From Verrucomicrobiota bacterium (lineage in GTDB: Bacteria; Verrucomicrobiota; Verrucomicrobiia; JABWAM01; JAHFSZ01): DNA of 32,087 nucleotides. The first letter of the stretch is position 1. Every line of letters starts with the position of its first letter. The translations under genes were made by a program, and so were the position numbers. The notes under the pieces are model-generated. The model was not told the DNA's origin, searched no databases, and saw only the letters and a program-made list of their open reading frames with translations. The DNA lies in NCBI GenBank assembly GCA_023265515.1, contig JAHFSZ010000022.1, positions 2,067-34,153 of the forward strand, read 5' to 3'. Positions 22,268-31,274 of the stretch are shown in pieces.

Positions 22268-22483
22268 GGCTGCATCATGTGGTTTTTGAGGGTGGCCGCG
22301 CAAACGATTTTTCACCCCGCGGCCACGCCTTGCCCACCGGTCGTGGCGCTCGCAACGCATGCCCCGATAGTTTTGGGATAGGTTCTATGCCAATGAATAT
22401 AAACAATGCCTATTCGCGAGGGAGGGGTGAGCCACAAAAATCGCGTGACCCTGCGAATATTGCGGGTTATCAGTAGAAAGAGA

Positions 22484-24676
22484 ATGGGTGACGACGAGCA
22501 GTCTCTTCAGGGCGGGGATGGGGAAGTCGCGGGACAGCCGGCGGGAGAGGAGGTCGCCTATGTGGATCCCTGGGTCGGCCAGTACCTCGCTGACTACTAT
22601 ATCATCCGGCGTCTCGGTGAGGGCGGCATGGGGATTGTCTACCTGGCGCGCCACCAATCCCTGGACCGCCTGGCAGCCGTTAAGTTCCTTGGCGCCCACA
22701 TGGTCGACGACAAAGGCTACATCGAGCGTTTTCTCAACGAGGCGAGGGGCGCGGCCAAGCTCAACCATCCGAACATCGTGGCCGTCTACGACGCAGGCTC
22801 CATGGGGGAGAACATCTACTATTTCATCATGGAGTACATCGAAGGACAGGACCTCGGAACGCTCCTGAGGGAGCGGCACATCTTCCCGGTTCCCGAGGCC
22901 GTCGGCTATATCCGTCAGGCTGCCGTCGCGCTTGGCTATGCCCATAAGAAGAGAATCATCCATCGGGATATCAAGCCGGATAACCTGATGCTGACCCATG
23001 AAGGCACGATCAAGGTCGGCGACCTCGGTCTTGCCAAGTGGATGAGCGACGATGGCAGCGGGGGCATGACCCAATCGGGTGTTGTCATGGGCACGCCATT
23101 CTACATTTCGCCGGAACAGGTGCGCGGCTCGCGCGACGTTGACTGGCGCTCGGACATTTATTCGCTTGGCGCCACGCTGCATCATATGGTCACCGGGCGA
23201 ATTCCCTACGAAGGCACGTCGCCCGCGGTGATCATGGCCATGCACCTCAACAGTCCGGTGCCGGAGCCGAACCGCGCCAATCCCTCCCTTGACGCGGATG
23301 TTTGCGCAATCATCAGGAAGATGATGGCCAAGAACGTGGAGGACCGCTTCCAAACGATGGAGGATGTGGACGCCGCGCTGGCGGAATACCAGGCGGGGAA
23401 GATGCGGTCGGCCCAATTCGCTCCCGGGGCGGTGTCTCCGTTGCCCGCCCAGCCTCCGACCGAGCCGCAGCGGCTTCCGACCGAGCCTCCCGAGCGCATC
23501 CGTCTGCCGATCATGGTCCAATCGGAACCTGGCGCACCGGTCAAGATTGCCACGATCATCGGAGTGAGCATCATCGCTGCCGCGGTGATCCTCGGATTGT
23601 TTCTCTCGTCAGTCCTCAAATTCAAGGCCGGGGAGACGGCGGGCGCGGCCCAGCCGCGGACCGCCTCGGAAACGACCCAGCCGCGGGCGAACGTTGCCGT
23701 GGATGGAAAGCCGATTGAAATCAAACTGCCGGAGGTTGTTCCGGCCGTTCCACCCCAGCCAACCGCGGCCAATGCGGAGGTGGCGGCTCAGAATCCCGAG
23801 CCGCCGCCGTCCCGTCCTCCGCCCGACGTTCCGCCGCGGCCAACGCCTGCCATCGAGCAAGCCTCACAACCGCCTCAGAACGAGGGGCTTTTTGAAATGG
23901 CGCGGACACAGACCCCGCCGGCCGAGGTTCAGCCTTTCGTCGGCTCGCCCAGCTCCGACATGCATGGCCAGCCCTCCGGACCGCCGGAAATGGTGATCAT
24001 CATGGCGGATGGCACCGAGCATGTTCTGCCGGAGAAAATGCAGGAGCTGCTCCGCAGCCCGGACCGGATCAAACGGGCCTTTTACGCACAGCCTTTTAAC
24101 GCAGCCGAACCCGGCGTCCTTCCCAAGGGCGTCGAGTGCATGCTGGTCGAACCGGGCGGCCGAAGCAAACCCATCATCGTCGGTCCCGCCGGCTTCAAAA
24201 GCCAAAAGCCTTTTTGCGAAGCAAACTGGGGGTTTGAGAAGGATGACAACGACCTGGGCCGGCCCTGCCTGAAACTCCGGCATGAGACGGAGGTGAACCA
24301 GTGGATCCTCGGGATCAAATTCAACCTGCCCTCGCCGGTGCGAGGCAAAAAATTCTGGGTGACGTACACACTCCGTGCCGGCAACCCCTCTCCGAGAATT
24401 GAACTGGCCACCGAGCCCGAATCCGGTTTTCTCCCCAAGCTCCAGCTGAGCGACCGTTGGAAAACCTATATTGTTCCCATGCCGCTTCTGGCCAGATCGG
24501 AACTCAGAAGCATCCTGATCGGGATGCAGGGAACAGGCGAACTGCAAATCGCGGAGGTCCGGGTCGAACCCATTCCAGAAGCGATGAAATTCCTTTCCGA
24601 GAAATTCCAGTCCAGGCAGGGTCCGCAGACGCCCACGGGATCGGGGAACAGCACTTTTGGCAAAAGGAGGCGGTGA
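22484..24676 (+). CDS. Membrane Ser/Thr protein kinase with extracytoplasmic domain
   Basis: 730 residues. Cytoplasmic Hanks-type kinase domain at about 38-310: glycine loop GEGGMG (45-50), Lys67 in AAVKFLG, catalytic HRDIKPDN with Asp162 and Asn167, and DLG in place of DFG (Asp180), a common PVC variant. SPEQVRGSRDVDWRSDIYSLG fits the APE region. A single transmembrane segment lies at about 353-376, followed by a proline-rich linker (to about 500) and a beta-rich C-terminal domain with no recognised family. The ATG at 22484 was chosen because its numbering then matches the downstream kinase exactly; an ATG at 22406 would add 26 residues and is not excluded. It is followed by a second kinase with stop and start overlapping by 1 nt. 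Probably senses an envelope signal. Confidence 0.9.
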   Translation: MGDDEQSLQGGDGEVAGQPAGEEVAYVDPWVGQYLADYYIIRRLGEGGMGIVYLARHQSLDRLAAVKFLGAHMVDDKGYIERFLNEARGAAKLNHPNIVAVYDAGSMGENIYYFIMEYIEGQDLGTLLRERHIFPVPEAVGYIRQAAVALGYAHKKRIIHRDIKPDNLMLTHEGTIKVGDLGLAKWMSDDGSGGMTQSGVVMGTPFYISPEQVRGSRDVDWRSDIYSLGATLHHMVTGRIPYEGTSPAVIMAMHLNSPVPEPNRANPSLDADVCAIIRKMMAKNVEDRFQTMEDVDAALAEYQAGKMRSAQFAPGAVSPLPAQPPTEPQRLPTEPPERIRLPIMVQSEPGAPVKIATIIGVSIIAAAVILGLFLSSVLKFKAGETAGAAQPRTASETTQPRANVAVDGKPIEIKLPEVVPAVPPQPTAANAEVAAQNPEPPPSRPPPDVPPRPTPAIEQASQPPQNEGLFEMARTQTPPAEVQPFVGSPSSDMHGQPSGPPEMVIIMADGTEHVLPEKMQELLRSPDRIKRAFYAQPFNAAEPGVLPKGVECMLVEPGGRSKPIIVGPAGFKSQKPFCEANWGFEKDDNDLGRPCLKLRHETEVNQWILGIKFNLPSPVRGKKFWVTYTLRAGNPSPRIELATEPESGFLPKLQLSDRWKTYIVPMPLLARSELRSILIGMQGTGELQIAEVRVEPIPEAMKFLSEKFQSRQGPQTPTGSGNSTFGKRRR
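24662..24670 (+). promoter_or_regulatory. Strong ribosome binding site of the second kinase
   Basis: AAAAGGAGG sits 5 nt before the ATG at 24676 and lies inside the end of the first kinase gene. It is one of the clearest Shine-Dalgarno sequences in the window and fixes the start of the second kinase. The TGATG overlap suggests reinitiation or coupled translation. Confidence 0.8.
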
Positions 24677-25869
24677 TGAGCGATACAGATCCAATGCTTT
24701 CCGGAGGTGATCCGGAGACTCCCGTCGCCCCGCAGGAGGACGAGGGCGAATTCATCGATCCGTGGATCGGACAGGATCTTGCAGGCTACACGATCGTGGA
24801 GCGCATCGGGGAGGGCGGGATGGGAATCGTCTACCTCGGCCGCCACGAATCGCTGGGCCGCCTCGCGGCGGTCAAATTCCTCGGCGCCCATATGGTCAAT
24901 GACAAGGCCTATATCGAGCGTTTTCTTCATGAGGCCCGGGGCGCGGCAAAACTCAACCACCCCAACATTGTCCAGGTCTACGACTCGGGCGCGCTGGAAG
25001 GCGATGTGTATTATTTCATCATGGAATACGTCGCGGGCAAGGATCTCGGGACGCTCCTGCGTGAGAGGCATATCTTTTCAGTGCCCGAAGCGGTTGGCTA
25101 TGTGCGTCAGGCGGCCTCGGCCCTCGGCTACGCCCATCAGAAACAAACCATCCACCGCGACGTGAAGCCCGACAACTTGATGCTGACCGCGGACAACGTC
25201 ATCAAGGTCGGCGACCTCGGGCTCGCGAAATGGACGGGTGACGAGGACGGCGCCGGCGTGACCCAAACCGGTGTGGTGATGGGCACGCCATTCTACATTT
25301 CGCCGGAGCAGGTGAGGGGATCCCGTGATGTCAGCTCGAGGTCCGACATTTACTCGCTCGGCGCGACGTTCTACCATCTTGTTACAAGTAAAATTCCTTA
25401 TGATGGTTCCTCGCCGGCGGTGATCATGTCGATGCACCTGAACAATCCCGTTCCGGAGCCAAGCAAGGTAAACCCGGCACTGGACCGCGACATCTGCGCC
25501 ATCATCAAGAAGATGATGGCCAAGAATCCGGACGACCGTTACCAGACGATGGATGAAGTGGACACCGTTTTGGCCGAATACCTCTCCAGAAGTTCGCACC
25601 CAACCCAGATCCTTTCGAAGATTTCACTCGCCGGCCAGACGAAGCCGGTGGAGACGGTCACACCCTTCCGGGGCTGGGATCCGCAAGTGATCGCCCAGTC
25701 GGAAGGGGGCTCTCCGGCCAAAGTCGGCCTCGCGGTGGGGATCAGCATGCTCGTCGCTGCCATCCTGCTGGGTTTGACCATCACCGCGATCAGCCACCGC
25801 CATCCAGCCAACGGCGCCGCGGCCGCGGCATTTCCGGCAAAAGCCGATGCCAAGACGCCGCCGCCCTGA
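24676..25869 (+). CDS. Membrane Ser/Thr protein kinase, short paralogue
   Basis: 397 residues and a close paralogue of the preceding kinase. Kinase domain with GEGGMG (45-50), Lys67, HRDVKPDN with Asp162 and Asn167, DLG (Asp180) and MGTPFYISPEQVRGSRDV; the numbering equals that of the first kinase through the domain. After a juxtamembrane segment it has one transmembrane helix (about 355-380, GLAVGISMLVAAILLGLT) and only a short tail ending in KTPPP, so the large outer domain of its neighbour is missing. No frameshift or remnant of that domain is visible downstream, since the next gene starts within 40 bp. All catalytic residues are intact. It may act as a partner or signal spreader for the first kinase; this is inferred from the layout. 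Confidence 0.92.
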   Translation: MSDTDPMLSGGDPETPVAPQEDEGEFIDPWIGQDLAGYTIVERIGEGGMGIVYLGRHESLGRLAAVKFLGAHMVNDKAYIERFLHEARGAAKLNHPNIVQVYDSGALEGDVYYFIMEYVAGKDLGTLLRERHIFSVPEAVGYVRQAASALGYAHQKQTIHRDVKPDNLMLTADNVIKVGDLGLAKWTGDEDGAGVTQTGVVMGTPFYISPEQVRGSRDVSSRSDIYSLGATFYHLVTSKIPYDGSSPAVIMSMHLNNPVPEPSKVNPALDRDICAIIKKMMAKNPDDRYQTMDEVDTVLAEYLSRSSHPTQILSKISLAGQTKPVETVTPFRGWDPQVIAQSEGGSPAKVGLAVGISMLVAAILLGLTITAISHRHPANGAAAAAFPAKADAKTPPP

Positions 25870-25907
25870 GCTTGCTTTCCCCAGCGACCAATCTGGATGA
25901 TCGAACC

Positions 25908-27446
25908 ATGGATGGAGTGATCCAAAGCGCGCACCGCGTGTTCCCGCCTCCACACCCCGGGGCAGGAGCTGTGATTTTCGAGGATGTCCATCTTCTGGCC
26001 GTGAACAAGCCGGCGGGAATTCCGACGCATACTCCCGAGCCCGGGCTTTGCTGGGGGTGGTACGAATACTTTCATTGGAGGAACCCAGGTTCCACAAAAC
26101 TGCGCCTTTTGCACAGGCTTGACCGGGAGACTTCGGGTGTTCTGTTGCTCGCCAAAAGCGGGGAGGCAAGCCGCGAGTTGGCGAGCCAGTGGGAAGCCGG
26201 GTCGGTGTTCAAGCGCTACCTTTTCGCGGCCCGGCGCAAACCGCAAAAAACGACCTGGAAGGTGGAGCAAATGATCGGCGGCCAAAGGGCGGTTACTGAA
26301 TTCCGCGCTCTGGATCGGCATGGGGAATTTTACAGGATTGAGGCCTATCCGAAAACCGGCCGGACGCACCAAGTCCGTCTCCACGCCGCGGCTTCCGGCG
26401 TACCGGTCGTCGGAGACCGCGAGCATGGCGAGCCGCGGGACGATTGGCCGCTCCTTCTCCATGCCGCGGAGATCGGCTGCCGCCCGCCTGGTGCGAAGGC
26501 CGATGCGCGTTTCTCCGCGCCATTGCCTGAAACGCTTTCAGCCGTCTCCGCCACGGAGGCCTGGTGGATGCGGGCCGGCTTGTTGAGAGAGGCGATGGCC
26601 GGGGATGCGGAGGCTGTGCGATGGATCCATGGCGCCGCGGATGGTTTTCCGGAACAGACGGTGGATCGTTACGCAGAGGTATGGGTGTTGTCGAATTTCT
26701 CGGAAATACGCGACGATTTTTTGAGAAGGAAACTTACCGGCCGAAAAATGATCGTCAAGCGGTACCAGGGCCAGGGCCGCGTAAAAAATGTCGGAAATGC
26801 GGCGGCAGTTACCGTGACTGAAAACGGTTTGCGCTATGAAATCCAGTTTGGTGAGGCGACCACCACCGGGCTCTTTCTCGACCAACGGGAAAACCGCCTG
26901 TGGCTGAAACGTCTGCTTCCCGTCCTGCCGCCCGGATCGGTGCTGAACTGCTTTGCCCATACCTGCTCTTTTTCCGTGGTCGCGGCTCGCGCAGGCCGGA
27001 TGACGGCCAGCATTGACCTGTCGCCCAAGTATCTGGAATGGGGAAAAAGAAATTTTGTTCTCAACGGCGTGGACCCCGAGGCGCACCGATGGCTGCGCGG
27101 CGAGGCAGGGGATTGGATCAAGCGGCTGAAAAAGAAAGGGGAGAGATTTGCGGCAGTGATTCTCGATCCGCCCAGCTTTTCGCGGAGCAAACGGGGTGTT
27201 TTCCGGGTGGAGCGGGACCTTGAGCCGCTGGTCCGCGAGGCCGCATCGCTGGTTGCGCCGGGCGGTGGGATGTTCATCGCGACCAATTACCAGAAATGGT
27301 CCCAGAAGGCCCTGGTTTCGACCGTACGCAGGGCGTTTCAGGGAAGGAAGATTGTTCTCAAGTCCGTTCCACTGCCGCCGGATTTCCCTTATCAGGCCGG
27401 CGCGCCGCTTTGGATGAAGTCTGTGTGGGCGGCGTTTCAGGGATAA
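25908..27446 (+). CDS. Fusion of RluA-type pseudouridine synthase and RlmI-like rRNA methyltransferase
   Basis: 512 residues with two RNA-modifying halves in one intact frame. Residues about 20-215 are an RluA-family synthase: VNKPAGIPTH, catalytic HRLDRETSG with Asp72 and KTGRTHQVRLH (149-159). Residues about 230-512 resemble RlmI/RlmK SAM-dependent methyltransferases for 23S rRNA cytosine: RWIHGAADGFPEQTVDRY, TTGLFLDQRENR, VLNCFAHTCSFSVVAARAG (SAM site) and LDPPSFSRSK (419-428). The N-terminal PUA domain of RlmI is absent, and the synthase takes its place. The ATG at 25908 was chosen over the TTG at 25872. The gene follows the second kinase by 38 bp. Which rRNA positions are modified cannot be read from the sequence. 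Confidence 0.88.
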   Translation: MDGVIQSAHRVFPPPHPGAGAVIFEDVHLLAVNKPAGIPTHTPEPGLCWGWYEYFHWRNPGSTKLRLLHRLDRETSGVLLLAKSGEASRELASQWEAGSVFKRYLFAARRKPQKTTWKVEQMIGGQRAVTEFRALDRHGEFYRIEAYPKTGRTHQVRLHAAASGVPVVGDREHGEPRDDWPLLLHAAEIGCRPPGAKADARFSAPLPETLSAVSATEAWWMRAGLLREAMAGDAEAVRWIHGAADGFPEQTVDRYAEVWVLSNFSEIRDDFLRRKLTGRKMIVKRYQGQGRVKNVGNAAAVTVTENGLRYEIQFGEATTTGLFLDQRENRLWLKRLLPVLPPGSVLNCFAHTCSFSVVAARAGRMTASIDLSPKYLEWGKRNFVLNGVDPEAHRWLRGEAGDWIKRLKKKGERFAAVILDPPSFSRSKRGVFRVERDLEPLVREAASLVAPGGGMFIATNYQKWSQKALVSTVRRAFQGRKIVLKSVPLPPDFPYQAGAPLWMKSVWAAFQG

Positions 27447-27506: not shown

Positions 27507-27866
<360 letters not shown>

Positions 27867-29285
27867 TTAGGAGTTGTAGGCTTCTTCGCCATGCTGCGTC
27901 ACGTCAAGGCCTTGAGTTTCCTGTTCCTCCGCCACGCGCAGGCCGATCGTTGCGTCCACGATCTTCAGGATGATGAACGTCGCGAGGCCGGCCAGAATCC
28001 AGCTGGTTCCAACGGCTTTCGCCTGGTTCAGGAGCTGGGCCATGCCTCCTTCGAATTTGCCCGCGATCGCGCTGTTCACAGCACCGCTTGCAAAGACTCC
28101 GGTCAGGAGCGCACCGATGGTTCCTCCGATTCCGTGAACGCCGAATGCGTCAAGGGAGTCGTCATAACCCAAGGCGTGCTTGAGCTTTGAAACCGCCAGG
28201 TAGCAAAACACACCAGCCGCCGTCCCGATGACGAGCGCCGCCGGCACCGACACGAAGCCGGACGCCGGAGTGATCGCCACCAGGCCTGCCACCATTCCGG
28301 AAGCAAGACCCAAGACACTCGGCTTTCCCTTCAGGATCCACTCAGCGCATGCCCAGCCCAGGGCCGCTGCGGCCGTCGCAAAGTGCGTTGCCGCGAAGGC
28401 GCTGGAGGCCATGATGCCCGCATTCAGCGCGCTGCCGGCGTTGAAACCGAACCAGCCGACCCAGAGGAGGGCCGCGCCGATGAGGCTCAGCACCACATTG
28501 TGCGGCAGCATCGGCTGTGCCGGATAGCCCAGGCGCTTGCCGAGCACGAGCGCGCAGACCAGCGCGGAGACGCCCGAACTGATGTGCACCACGGTGCCAC
28601 CTGCGTAGTCGAGCGCGGGAATCTTTCCGCCCGCCGCCCAGTTGAACAGACCGCCGTCACCCCAGACCATGTGGGCCAGCGGGAAATAGACGATCGTGGA
28701 CCAGAGGATCATAAAGACCGCGAACGCGCTGAACTTCATTCGCTCCGCGAATGCGCCGCTGATCAAAGCCGGGGTGATGATTGCGAACATCAGCTGGAAG
28801 AGCATGAACGTTTGCTGAGGAATGGTCCCCGAGTAGGTGGCGTTGGGAGCCGCGCCCACGCCGTCGAGCATGAAATAATGCTTCAAGCTCCCGAAAAACA
28901 CATTCCCAGGCGCAAAGGCCATGCTGTAGCCGTAGATGACCCATAGAACCGAAACCAGCGCCATGAGAAACAGGCTGTGCATCATCGTCGAGAGAACGTT
29001 CTTACTGCGGACGAGGCCGCCATAGAAGAGCGCCAATCCCGGACCTGTCATCATCAGAACGAGCGCCGAGCTCGTCAGCACCCAGGCGTTATCGCCCGCG
29101 CTGATGCTGACTTTCGCCCCACGGTTATCAGCCGATGGCGCCGACTGGTTCATGACCGATTCGATGTCGGTGACGCGCTCTTCCAGCGTGGGATCACGCG
29201 GTTTTGCGCCCGTCTCTTGCGCAGATGCGCACGGCGCGACCAGCGCCGCCGCAAAACAACAGAGCATGAGGAGGAGTTTTTTCAT
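27867..29285 (-). CDS. amt: Ammonium transporter 1 (AmtB family)
   Basis: 472 residues, inner membrane trimeric NH4+/NH3 channel with a cleavable signal peptide (KKLLLMLCCFAAALVAPCASA) and 11 expected transmembrane helices. Compared with E. coli AmtB, Asp226 and His234 (LDYAGGTVVHI) fit Asp160 and His168, His384 (FGVHGIGG) fits His318, and Phe167 and Phe281 fit the gate phenylalanines. A polar segment of about 40 residues (24-62) separates the signal peptide from the first helix, longer than usual. The tail GLDVTQHGEEAY is the PII-interacting C-terminus. The ATG at 29285 was chosen because it gives the signal peptide and has AAGGA 9 nt upstream; the frame is open to 29381. Followed by glnK1. 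Confidence 0.95.
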   Translation of the reverse strand: MKKLLLMLCCFAAALVAPCASAQETGAKPRDPTLEERVTDIESVMNQSAPSADNRGAKVSISAGDNAWVLTSSALVLMMTGPGLALFYGGLVRSKNVLSTMMHSLFLMALVSVLWVIYGYSMAFAPGNVFFGSLKHYFMLDGVGAAPNATYSGTIPQQTFMLFQLMFAIITPALISGAFAERMKFSAFAVFMILWSTIVYFPLAHMVWGDGGLFNWAAGGKIPALDYAGGTVVHISSGVSALVCALVLGKRLGYPAQPMLPHNVVLSLIGAALLWVGWFGFNAGSALNAGIMASSAFAATHFATAAAALGWACAEWILKGKPSVLGLASGMVAGLVAITPASGFVSVPAALVIGTAAGVFCYLAVSKLKHALGYDDSLDAFGVHGIGGTIGALLTGVFASGAVNSAIAGKFEGGMAQLLNQAKAVGTSWILAGLATFIILKIVDATIGLRVAEEQETQGLDVTQHGEEAYNS

Positions 29286-29413
29286 TCTGGATTGTCCTTG
29301 GTTGTTGGAGGGGGTTTCCGATTGGGTTCGGACTGCAGTCTTAAGTCGGTAAGGTTTAGGAACGTCTTCGGATTTGGTCAACTCCAGATTCAGAGAGAAT
29401 TGTCAATATGCAC

Positions 29414-29450
29414 AAAAAAAACCGCGGGGACCTCCCCCAGGTCCCCGCGG
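29414..29450 (-). terminator. Strong intrinsic terminator of glnK2
   Basis: A perfect 12-bp stem CCGCGGGGACCT (29422-29433) and AGGTCCCCGCGG (29439-29450) with a 5-nt loop, followed on the minus strand by eight T (A run 29414-29421). It is the best terminator in the window and separates the glnK3-amt2-glnK2 unit from amt1-glnK1. It resembles the glnK1 terminator in stem sequence, consistent with common origin. Confidence 0.92.
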
Positions 29451-29481
29451 CCTTGCGTTGTCTCATCCGGGATTGAGCCGC

Positions 29482-29823
<342 letters not shown>

Positions 29824-29837
29824 TTAGACCCTTTCTT

Positions 29838-31274
29838 TCAACCATGGGTTGCGGGTTGGAAATCCGGGTAGGCTTCCTGGCCATGTTCGCCAAGATCCAG
29901 ACCTTCCGTTTCTTCCTCTTCAGCGACGCGCAGGCCCATGACCGCCTTGATTACGTACCAGACGATCAGACCGCCGAACAATGTGAAGAGGCCGACCCAG
30001 AATACGCCTGTCGCTTGGTTGACCAGCTGCGTGATCCCGCCCCCATTGAAGAGGCCGAAGCCCGGGCCAGTCTTGCCATCCGTCCAGTTGGGGTGCGCGA
30101 ACAACCCGAGGGACAGTGTCCCCCAAACGCCGTTGACCAGGTGGACTGACAACGCGCCGACCGGGTCATCCAGTCGCAGCTTATCGAACATGATCACCGC
30201 GAAGACCACGAGAACGCCGGCGATCAAACCGATGACGATCGATGCGGGGGTGCTTACCCAGGCGCAAGGGCAGGTGATGGCCACCAGACCGGCAAGACAA
30301 CCATTCAGCGTCATGCTCAGATCGGGTTTCTTCAACATCAACCAGGCGGTTGCCATGGCGCCGATGCAGCCAGCCGCCGCCGCCGTATTGGTGGTGACGA
30401 AGATATGCGCGATCAGCTTGCCGTCGCCCACGCCCATCGTGGAGCCCGGGTTAAACCCAAACCAGCCCAGCCAGAGGACGAAGCAGCCGATAAAGGCTGA
30501 CGTCATGCTGTGGCCTGGGATCGGATGAACCTGCCCATCTTTGCCGAATTTTCCAAGCCGCGGTCCCAGGGCAATGACACCTGCGAGCGCCGCCCAACCT
30601 CCCACCGAGTGGACGACCGTGGATCCCGCAAAGTCCCAGACCCCTTTCTGGGCCAGAAACCCGCCTCCCCAGAGCCAGTGGCCGGTGATCGGGTACATCA
30701 CCGCGACCAGGACCGCCGAGAAGAGGATGAACGAGATGTACTTGATTCGTTCGGCCACCGCTCCCGAAACGATCGTGGCCGCCGTGCCGGCGAATACCAG
30801 CTGGAAGAAGAATTTCGCTTCCAGCGGAACGCCTGTCCAGTTGATCGACGTATAAACACCCTTGTAAGCGTCACCGGTCGCGGGCGAGTTGTCGCCCCCG
30901 AGCAGACACCAGAGGCCTTTCAAGCCAAAATACGGAGTTCCTTCACCGAACATCAGTCCCCATCCCAGCACATAAAACGAAATGGATGAGATCGCGAAGA
31001 CGATGAAGTTCTTCGACAGGATGTTGACGCAGTTCTTGGAACGGCACAGGCCGGACTCCACGAGACCGAAGCCCGTGTTCATGAAGAACACGAGGCCGGC
31101 CGTGAGAAGTACCCAGACCGTGTCCATTGCCACCTTGGCGGTCATCGAGCTGGACTCCAGCGCGCTGACCTGATCCGCCAGCGAAGGAGCCGCGGCTGCG
31201 GCTTCTTGCGCGAATGCATGCGGCGCGGCAAGCGCCGCCGCGAAACAACAGAGCATGAGGATGAGTTTTTTCAT
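29838..31274 (-). CDS. amt: Ammonium transporter 2 (Amt family)
   Basis: 478 residues with signal peptide (KKLILMLCCFAAALAAPHAFA) and a divergent Amt body. NTGFGLVESGLCRSKN (66-81) in the first helix replaces the GPGLALFYGGLVRSKN of amt1 and is typical of the other Amt subgroup seen in cyanobacteria and PVC bacteria. Asp214 and His222 (WDFAGSTVVHS), His378 (LSVHLVNG) and Phe161 and Phe274 match the channel residues of AmtB. The tail EGLDLGEHGQEAY is the PII-binding end, with a short extra DFQPATHG. Its first 24 residues and leader DNA resemble those of amt1 much more than the rest. The ATG at 31274 has AAGGA upstream. It is flanked by glnK2 and glnK3. Confidence 0.95.
   Translation of the reverse strand: MKKLILMLCCFAAALAAPHAFAQEAAAAAPSLADQVSALESSSMTAKVAMDTVWVLLTAGLVFFMNTGFGLVESGLCRSKNCVNILSKNFIVFAISSISFYVLGWGLMFGEGTPYFGLKGLWCLLGGDNSPATGDAYKGVYTSINWTGVPLEAKFFFQLVFAGTAATIVSGAVAERIKYISFILFSAVLVAVMYPITGHWLWGGGFLAQKGVWDFAGSTVVHSVGGWAALAGVIALGPRLGKFGKDGQVHPIPGHSMTSAFIGCFVLWLGWFGFNPGSTMGVGDGKLIAHIFVTTNTAAAAGCIGAMATAWLMLKKPDLSMTLNGCLAGLVAITCPCAWVSTPASIVIGLIAGVLVVFAVIMFDKLRLDDPVGALSVHLVNGVWGTLSLGLFAHPNWTDGKTGPGFGLFNGGGITQLVNQATGVFWVGLFTLFGGLIVWYVIKAVMGLRVAEEEETEGLDLGEHGQEAYPDFQPATHG

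What the first reader, a model, noticed from the sequence alone, without database searches (positions are those of the whole stretch)
25908..27446. RluA pseudouridine synthase fused to an RlmI-like methyltransferase lacking its PUA domain
One intact frame joins two rRNA-modification enzymes. The RluA active site (HRLDRETSG, Asp72) and the RlmI motifs (TTGLFLDQRENR, LDPPSFSRSK) are both complete. The RlmI central hairpin region is kept while its N-terminal RNA-binding PUA domain is replaced by the synthase, which suggests that the synthase supplies RNA binding for the methyltransferase. The two marks may be placed on neighbouring nucleotides. I do not know of a characterised fusion of this type.
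Basis: partly seen in the sequence, partly recalled or inferred. Interest (0 to 1): 0.62.

Follow-up and report, generated by a model that had tools for sequence, protein, structure and literature searches.

The report
Fused pseudouridine synthase and RNA methyltransferase
A single bacterial protein joins two RNA-modifying enzymes, one making pseudouridine and one that probably methylates guanine (not cytosine, as first thought), and the same uncharacterised fusion turns up in three bacterial phyla, so it is a real conserved enzyme that probably marks the ribosome's RNA at two places.

Summary
The fusion is real. One intact frame (25872/25908-27446, +) carries PseudoU_synth_2 (residues 40-174) and Methyltrans_SAM (289-488). 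At least 24 of 57 relatives have it, in 11 families, with differing neighbouring genes. The same architecture occurs in Bdellovibrionota (at least 50 of 99 genomes) and Myxococcota (23 of 141), so it is neither an assembly error nor confined to PVC. Key active-site residues of both halves are conserved.

RlmI's catalytic Cys is Asn in 38 of 39 fusions tested, as in RlmK (m7G2069) and the RlmQ-type proteins of Bacilli. RlmI forms a separate, fully supported clade. I predict a guanine-N7-type methyltransferase. The synthase need not be a substitute for the PUA domain: free-standing orthologues in the same class lack both.

The fused synthases form their own RluA subfamily, distinct from RluA, RluC, RluD and TruC. 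Target nucleotides are unknown; 23S rRNA is most likely. This is a new variant of a known kind; I found no paper on it.

The parts
25872..27446 (+). Whole fusion gene (524 aa from TTG 25872; ATG at 25908 gives 512 aa; GTG at 25971 is a third possible start, matching where homologues begin)
25962..26528 (+). RluA-family pseudouridine synthase domain, residues 31-219; no S4 domain
   Evidence: Pfam; AlphaFold2 model; Foldseek to RluC/RluA
26115..26135 (+). RLDRETS (residues 82-88 of HRLDRETSG) with catalytic Asp84, invariant in 22 fusions
26529..26600 (+). Low-confidence linker, residues 220-243
   Evidence: pLDDT below 50
26601..26858 (+). Central domain of the RlmI/RlmK/RlmQ type, residues 244-329 (VRWIHGAADGFPEQTVDRY); no PUA domain precedes it
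   Evidence: profile match to 2b78 and 3vse from their residue 80 on; model
26859..27443 (+). Class I SAM methyltransferase domain, residues 330-524 (TGLFLDQRENR, LNCFAHTCSF, DPPSF)
27285..27287 (+). Asn472, at the position of RlmI's catalytic Cys (IATNYQKW against TFSCSGLM)

Best explanation
A bifunctional rRNA-modification enzyme. The N-terminal domain isomerises a uridine to pseudouridine through Asp84, as in the RluA family (inferred from conserved residues). The C-terminal half binds SAM and methylates a second nucleotide without a catalytic cysteine, most likely a guanine N7, as RlmK and RlmQ do (inferred). The substrate is most likely 23S rRNA during early 50S assembly, by analogy with the characterised relatives RlmI, RlmK, RlmO, RlmQ and RluC. 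Tethering probably lets one binding event serve both reactions, as in RlmKL. Shown: the architecture, its conservation in three phyla, the Cys-to-Asn state, and separation from RlmI and RluC in trees. Not shown: either activity, the sites, and any coupling.
For: Both Pfam domains in all 16 members scanned, from two phyla. Active-site residues of both halves invariant or nearly so. Asn at the RlmI Cys position: 23/24 Verrucomicrobiota fusions (1 Ser), 15/15 Bdellovibrionota fusions, 19/19 solo orthologues, 6/7 RlmK-type, and S. aureus 3vse and S. mutans 2b78; RlmI-type proteins 16/16 Cys. RlmO, an m5C enzyme, has Cys. The main ~400-aa Bacilli relatives show Asn in the 18 of 20 that could be read, and B. 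subtilis ywbD is RlmQ, forming m7G2574 (title cited in PMC12805891). E. coli RlmKL's best match in most fusion-bearing relatives is the fusion's methyltransferase half. Best fold matches are 3vse/3ldf for the methyltransferase and RluC/RluA for the synthase. Fused synthases from Verrucomicrobiota and Bdellovibrionota lie on one side of a branch, apart from all free-standing ones sampled, and one clade for these methyltransferase halves is not rejected (p-AU 0.435). Precedents: RlmKL cooperativity (PMC11194073) and TrcP, an RluA-type domain fused to a deaminase (PMC9553926).
Against: No activity data. Asn marks the absence of the m5C nucleophile but does not itself prove m7G; one RlmK-like row has His. 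That ywbD is of the Asn type was not checked on its own sequence. The methyltransferase tree is weakly resolved deep down, and in one version Bdellovibrionota fusions group with RlmK/RlmQ rather than with Verrucomicrobiota fusions. On one fusion (L040) NCBIfam scores an m5C2499 model, which also covers the central domain, above RlmKL. Solo methyltransferases show that coupling is dispensable.
Confidence: 0.6

Rival explanations
1. One reading: an RlmI-type m5C methyltransferase whose PUA domain was replaced by a synthase that supplies RNA binding.
For: Pfam family and fold are shared with RlmI, and the central domain is kept. NCBIfam m5C models match below their cut-offs.
Against: Catalytic Cys replaced by Asn. 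RlmI and RlmI-like proteins form a 100-supported clade without the fusions. This genome has its own separate PUA- and Cys-bearing RlmI-like protein (L039). Solo orthologues lack both PUA and synthase.
Confidence: 0.08
2. Both domains are active but act independently on unrelated sites or RNAs (for example tRNA for the synthase, 23S rRNA for the methyltransferase); the fusion only fixes their stoichiometry.
For: Akkermansiaceae and others keep only the methyltransferase. The synthase lacks an S4 domain, as do E. coli RluA and TruC, which act on tRNA (RluA also on 23S). The linker looks flexible.
Against: The pairing is retained in three phyla and no free-standing member of the fused synthase clade was found, which suggests the tether matters.
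Confidence: 0.22
3. One half acts mainly as an RNA-binding or assembly platform while the other is the working enzyme.
For: In five Bdellovibrionota genomes a second fusion copy has a degenerate methyltransferase (DPP motif and Asn lost, L193-L197) with the synthase Asp kept. E. coli RlmL helps assembly without its activity (PMC11194073).
Against: In the window and in the main family both active sites are conserved; mean pairwise identity is 51% in the synthase and 55% in the methyltransferase.
Confidence: 0.1

Closest known systems
RlmKL (E. coli YcbY; m7G2069 and m2G2445)
   Same: A PUA-less Asn-type methyltransferase domain of the same family fused C-terminally to a second 23S rRNA modification enzyme; DPPTFS motif.
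   Different: The partner is a THUMP-RlmL methyltransferase, not a pseudouridine synthase. RlmK has LDHR and SNNKR motifs; Bdellovibrionota carry a separate RlmK-like protein besides the fusion.
RlmQ (B. subtilis ywbD; m7G2574), probably S. aureus 3vse and S. mutans 2b78
   Same: 3vse and 2b78 are the closest solved structures by profile and fold; DPPSFARNKK and TN motifs.
   Different: Keep about 80 N-terminal residues (PUA-type) and have no synthase; not shown to be orthologous.
RlmI / RlmO (m5C1962 / m5C1942)
   Same: Same superfamily, central domain and SAM fold.
   Different: Have the catalytic CS motif and a PUA domain; RlmI is a separate clade.
RluC / RluA / TruC / RluD
   Same: Same synthase fold and active-site motifs; RluC is the best solved match by sequence.
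   Different: Fused synthases form a separate branch; no S4 domain, unlike RluC and RluD.
TrcP (Vibrio cholerae, PMC9553926)
   Same: An RluA-family domain fused to another RNA-modifying enzyme, both active on one RNA.
   Different: The partner is a cytidine deaminase at the N-terminus and the substrate is tRNA-Tyr.

Membership tests
RluA-family pseudouridine synthase | HRLDxxTSG with catalytic Asp | tested here: met
   Asp84 invariant in 22 fusions and across two phyla; Pfam
RluA-family pseudouridine synthase | Conserved Tyr and THQxR motifs | tested here: met
   Y116, H166, Q167 and R169 invariant
RluC (Psi 955/2504/2580) | Groups with E. coli RluC; S4 domain | tested here: not met
   RluC forms its own clade (100 and 97) away from the fusions; no S4 domain
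RlmI / m5C methyltransferase | Catalytic Cys in motif VI | tested here: not met
   Asn472; 16/16 RlmI-type proteins have Cys; RlmO also Cys
RlmI / m5C methyltransferase | N-terminal PUA domain | tested here: not met
   Synthase occupies the N-terminus
RlmI / m5C methyltransferase | Groups with E. coli RlmI in a tree | tested here: not met
   RlmI clade, support 100, excludes the fusions
RlmK (m7G2069) | Asn-type motif VI, DPP[ST]FS motif IV, no PUA | tested here: met
RlmK (m7G2069) | Orthology to E. coli RlmK | tested here: inconclusive
   Best match of E. coli RlmKL in most fusion-bearing relatives, but outside the RlmK clade, and Bdellovibrionota have both
RlmQ (m7G2574) | Asn-type motif VI and close profile similarity | tested here: met
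   Profile 242 and 226 bits to 2b78 and 3vse, against 206 to RlmI; that these two are RlmQ is itself an inference
RlmQ (m7G2574) | PUA-type N-terminus | tested here: not met
m7G methyltransferase | Product is 7-methylguanosine | not testable with these tools
   needs biochemistry

The most novel reading that the evidence does not exclude
A single enzyme that installs pseudouridine and m7G at neighbouring nucleotides of the peptidyl-transferase region in one binding event, for example in helix 90, where RlmQ methylates G2574 and RluC makes Psi2580 in other bacteria.
Probability: 0.15. Interest if true: 0.72.

Novelty: new variant of a known kind. Interest (0 to 1): 0.48.

Why it matters
rRNA modification enzymes are usually one polypeptide with one kind of chemistry; RlmKL is the well-known fusion of two methyltransferases. 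A conserved fusion of a pseudouridine synthase with a methyltransferase in three phyla, including relatives of predatory Bdellovibrio, would be a second kind of coupled rRNA modification and predicts two paired marks that can be looked for directly. It also warns that annotating such proteins as RlmI/m5C would be wrong, since one motif position separates the m5C enzymes from the Cys-less relatives.

Tried and rejected
Assembly artefact merging two genes: rejected. Operon-driven accidental fusion: neighbouring genes differ between families (HIT and NrdR-like genes in one, a FabI-like gene in another, a protein kinase in the window) and no shared context was found within about 1.5 kb. RlmI/m5C: rejected on the Cys position and the tree. 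RluC orthology: rejected. Strict RlmK orthology: undecided. A first genome-contig scan with the single sequence found nothing; the alignment scan did. No fusion was seen in 200 Pseudomonadota at E 1e-70, nor in the sampled Verrucomicrobiota genomes outside the window's class. The RlmQ (S. aureus) and RlmKL structure papers are not in the library. Literature searches for such a fusion gave nothing relevant. A reading of L026 and some Bdellovibrionota proteins as Cys-bearing was dropped: their Cys is one position before the catalytic one.

Full report
WHAT IS THERE. The frame 25872-27446 (+) encodes 524 aa without a stop. Pfam places PseudoU_synth_2 at 40-174 and Methyltrans_SAM at 289-488. AlphaFold2 gives confident globular parts (mean pLDDT 82.4) joined by a weakly predicted linker at 220-243; residues 1-30 are disordered. 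Foldseek finds S. aureus 3vse, S. mutans 3ldf/2b78, RlmI, RlmO and RlmKL for the C-terminal part, and RluC and RluA for the N-terminal part. The start codon is uncertain: TTG 25872, ATG 25908, or a GTG at 25971 that matches where homologues begin.

IS IT REAL. The window lies in a 2.2-Mb, 103-contig genome, 88.5% complete. At least 24 of 57 searched relatives, in 11 families of the class, carry the same architecture at about 40% identity. Named homologues are Verrucomicrobia (L040, L041), and L041 is practically identical to the relative L024 in the trees. The organism is therefore most likely a verrucomicrobiote. A Pseudobdellovibrio contig (L042) has it too, and a search of that genome's order found it in at least 50 of 99 genomes. 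Myxococcota have it in 23 of 141. None of 200 Pseudomonadota has it at E 1e-70. Within the phylum it was seen only in the window's class (388 genomes). Neighbouring genes differ between families, so the fusion is not a shadow of a conserved operon.

THE SYNTHASE HALF. Asp84, Lys114, Tyr116 and the HQxR residues are conserved across two phyla. In trees with E. coli RluA, RluC, RluD and TruC, this genome's other synthases and 28-40 free-standing relatives, all 44 fused synthases of Verrucomicrobiota and Bdellovibrionota lie on one side of a branch (support 98, then 84 with more rows). When four Myxococcota rows were added only the summary table was printed, which does not tell whether all fusions stay together, so the place of the Myxococcota synthases is open. 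No free-standing member of the fused clade was found among the rows tested.

THE METHYLTRANSFERASE HALF. The central domain and SAM fold are kept but there is no PUA domain. At RlmI's catalytic Cys the fusions have Asn (38 of 39; one Ser), as do 19/19 solo orthologues, 6/7 RlmK-type proteins, 3vse and 2b78, whereas 16/16 RlmI-type proteins have Cys; RlmO and TTHA1280 also have Cys. The usual ~400-aa relatives in an order of Bacilli show Asn wherever it could be read (18 of 20), and B. subtilis ywbD is reported as RlmQ, forming m7G2574 (title cited in PMC12805891); S. aureus carries m7G at the same place in helix 90 (PMC12149560). RlmK forms m7G2069 (PMC11194073). I infer an m7G-type enzyme. 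That the RlmI Cys is the m5C nucleophile rests on established knowledge of the family (Sunita et al. 2008, from memory), not on a test here. RlmI-type proteins form a clade with support 100. Solo orthologues of about 300-340 aa without PUA or synthase occur in Akkermansiaceae and others, so the synthase is not a necessary RNA-binding substitute.

ORIGIN. Holding the Verrucomicrobiota (fused and solo) and Bdellovibrionota methyltransferases together as one clade is not rejected (p-AU 0.435). The methyltransferase tree is weak at depth, so one origin with transfer or loss, and repeated fusion, both remain open.

MECHANISM. Most likely both reactions act on 23S rRNA early in assembly, with tethering as in RlmKL, where the K domain enhances the L domain's activity (PMC11194073). 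TrcP shows that an RluA-type domain can be fused to a second catalytic domain acting on the same RNA (PMC9553926). Neither the sites nor the coupling is shown.

VERDICT. Observation confirmed. Interpretation partly supported: the fusion stands, the RlmI/m5C identity does not, and the PUA-replacement idea is not needed. New variant of a known kind.

Noticed in passing
L193-L197 (G512, G478, G520, G518, G495): Five Bdellovibrionota genomes carry a second fusion paralogue whose methyltransferase motifs are degenerate (DPP to DAP, EIP, DTP or DVP; Asn lost) while the synthase Asp is kept: a natural case of a synthase tethered to a probably dead methyltransferase.
   Followed up: partly
L039 (G000:C18:29065-29706): The window's genome has a separate 438-aa PUA-type RlmI-like protein with a CCS motif, a better candidate for the m5C enzyme.
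   Followed up: partly
window 22406-25869: Two consecutive, similar serine/threonine protein kinase genes, the second ending about 40 bases upstream of the fusion's ATG on the same strand.
   Followed up: no
window 27507-31274 (-): Two nearly identical PII (GlnB-like) genes, each next to an ammonium-transporter (AmtB-like) gene, look like a duplicated nitrogen-regulation pair.
   Followed up: no
L033, L034, L036: Free-standing Asn-type methyltransferases in families without the fusion; the window's methyltransferase half groups with these three rather than with other fusions (support 83 and 94), which hints at loss or gain of the synthase within the class.
   Followed up: partly
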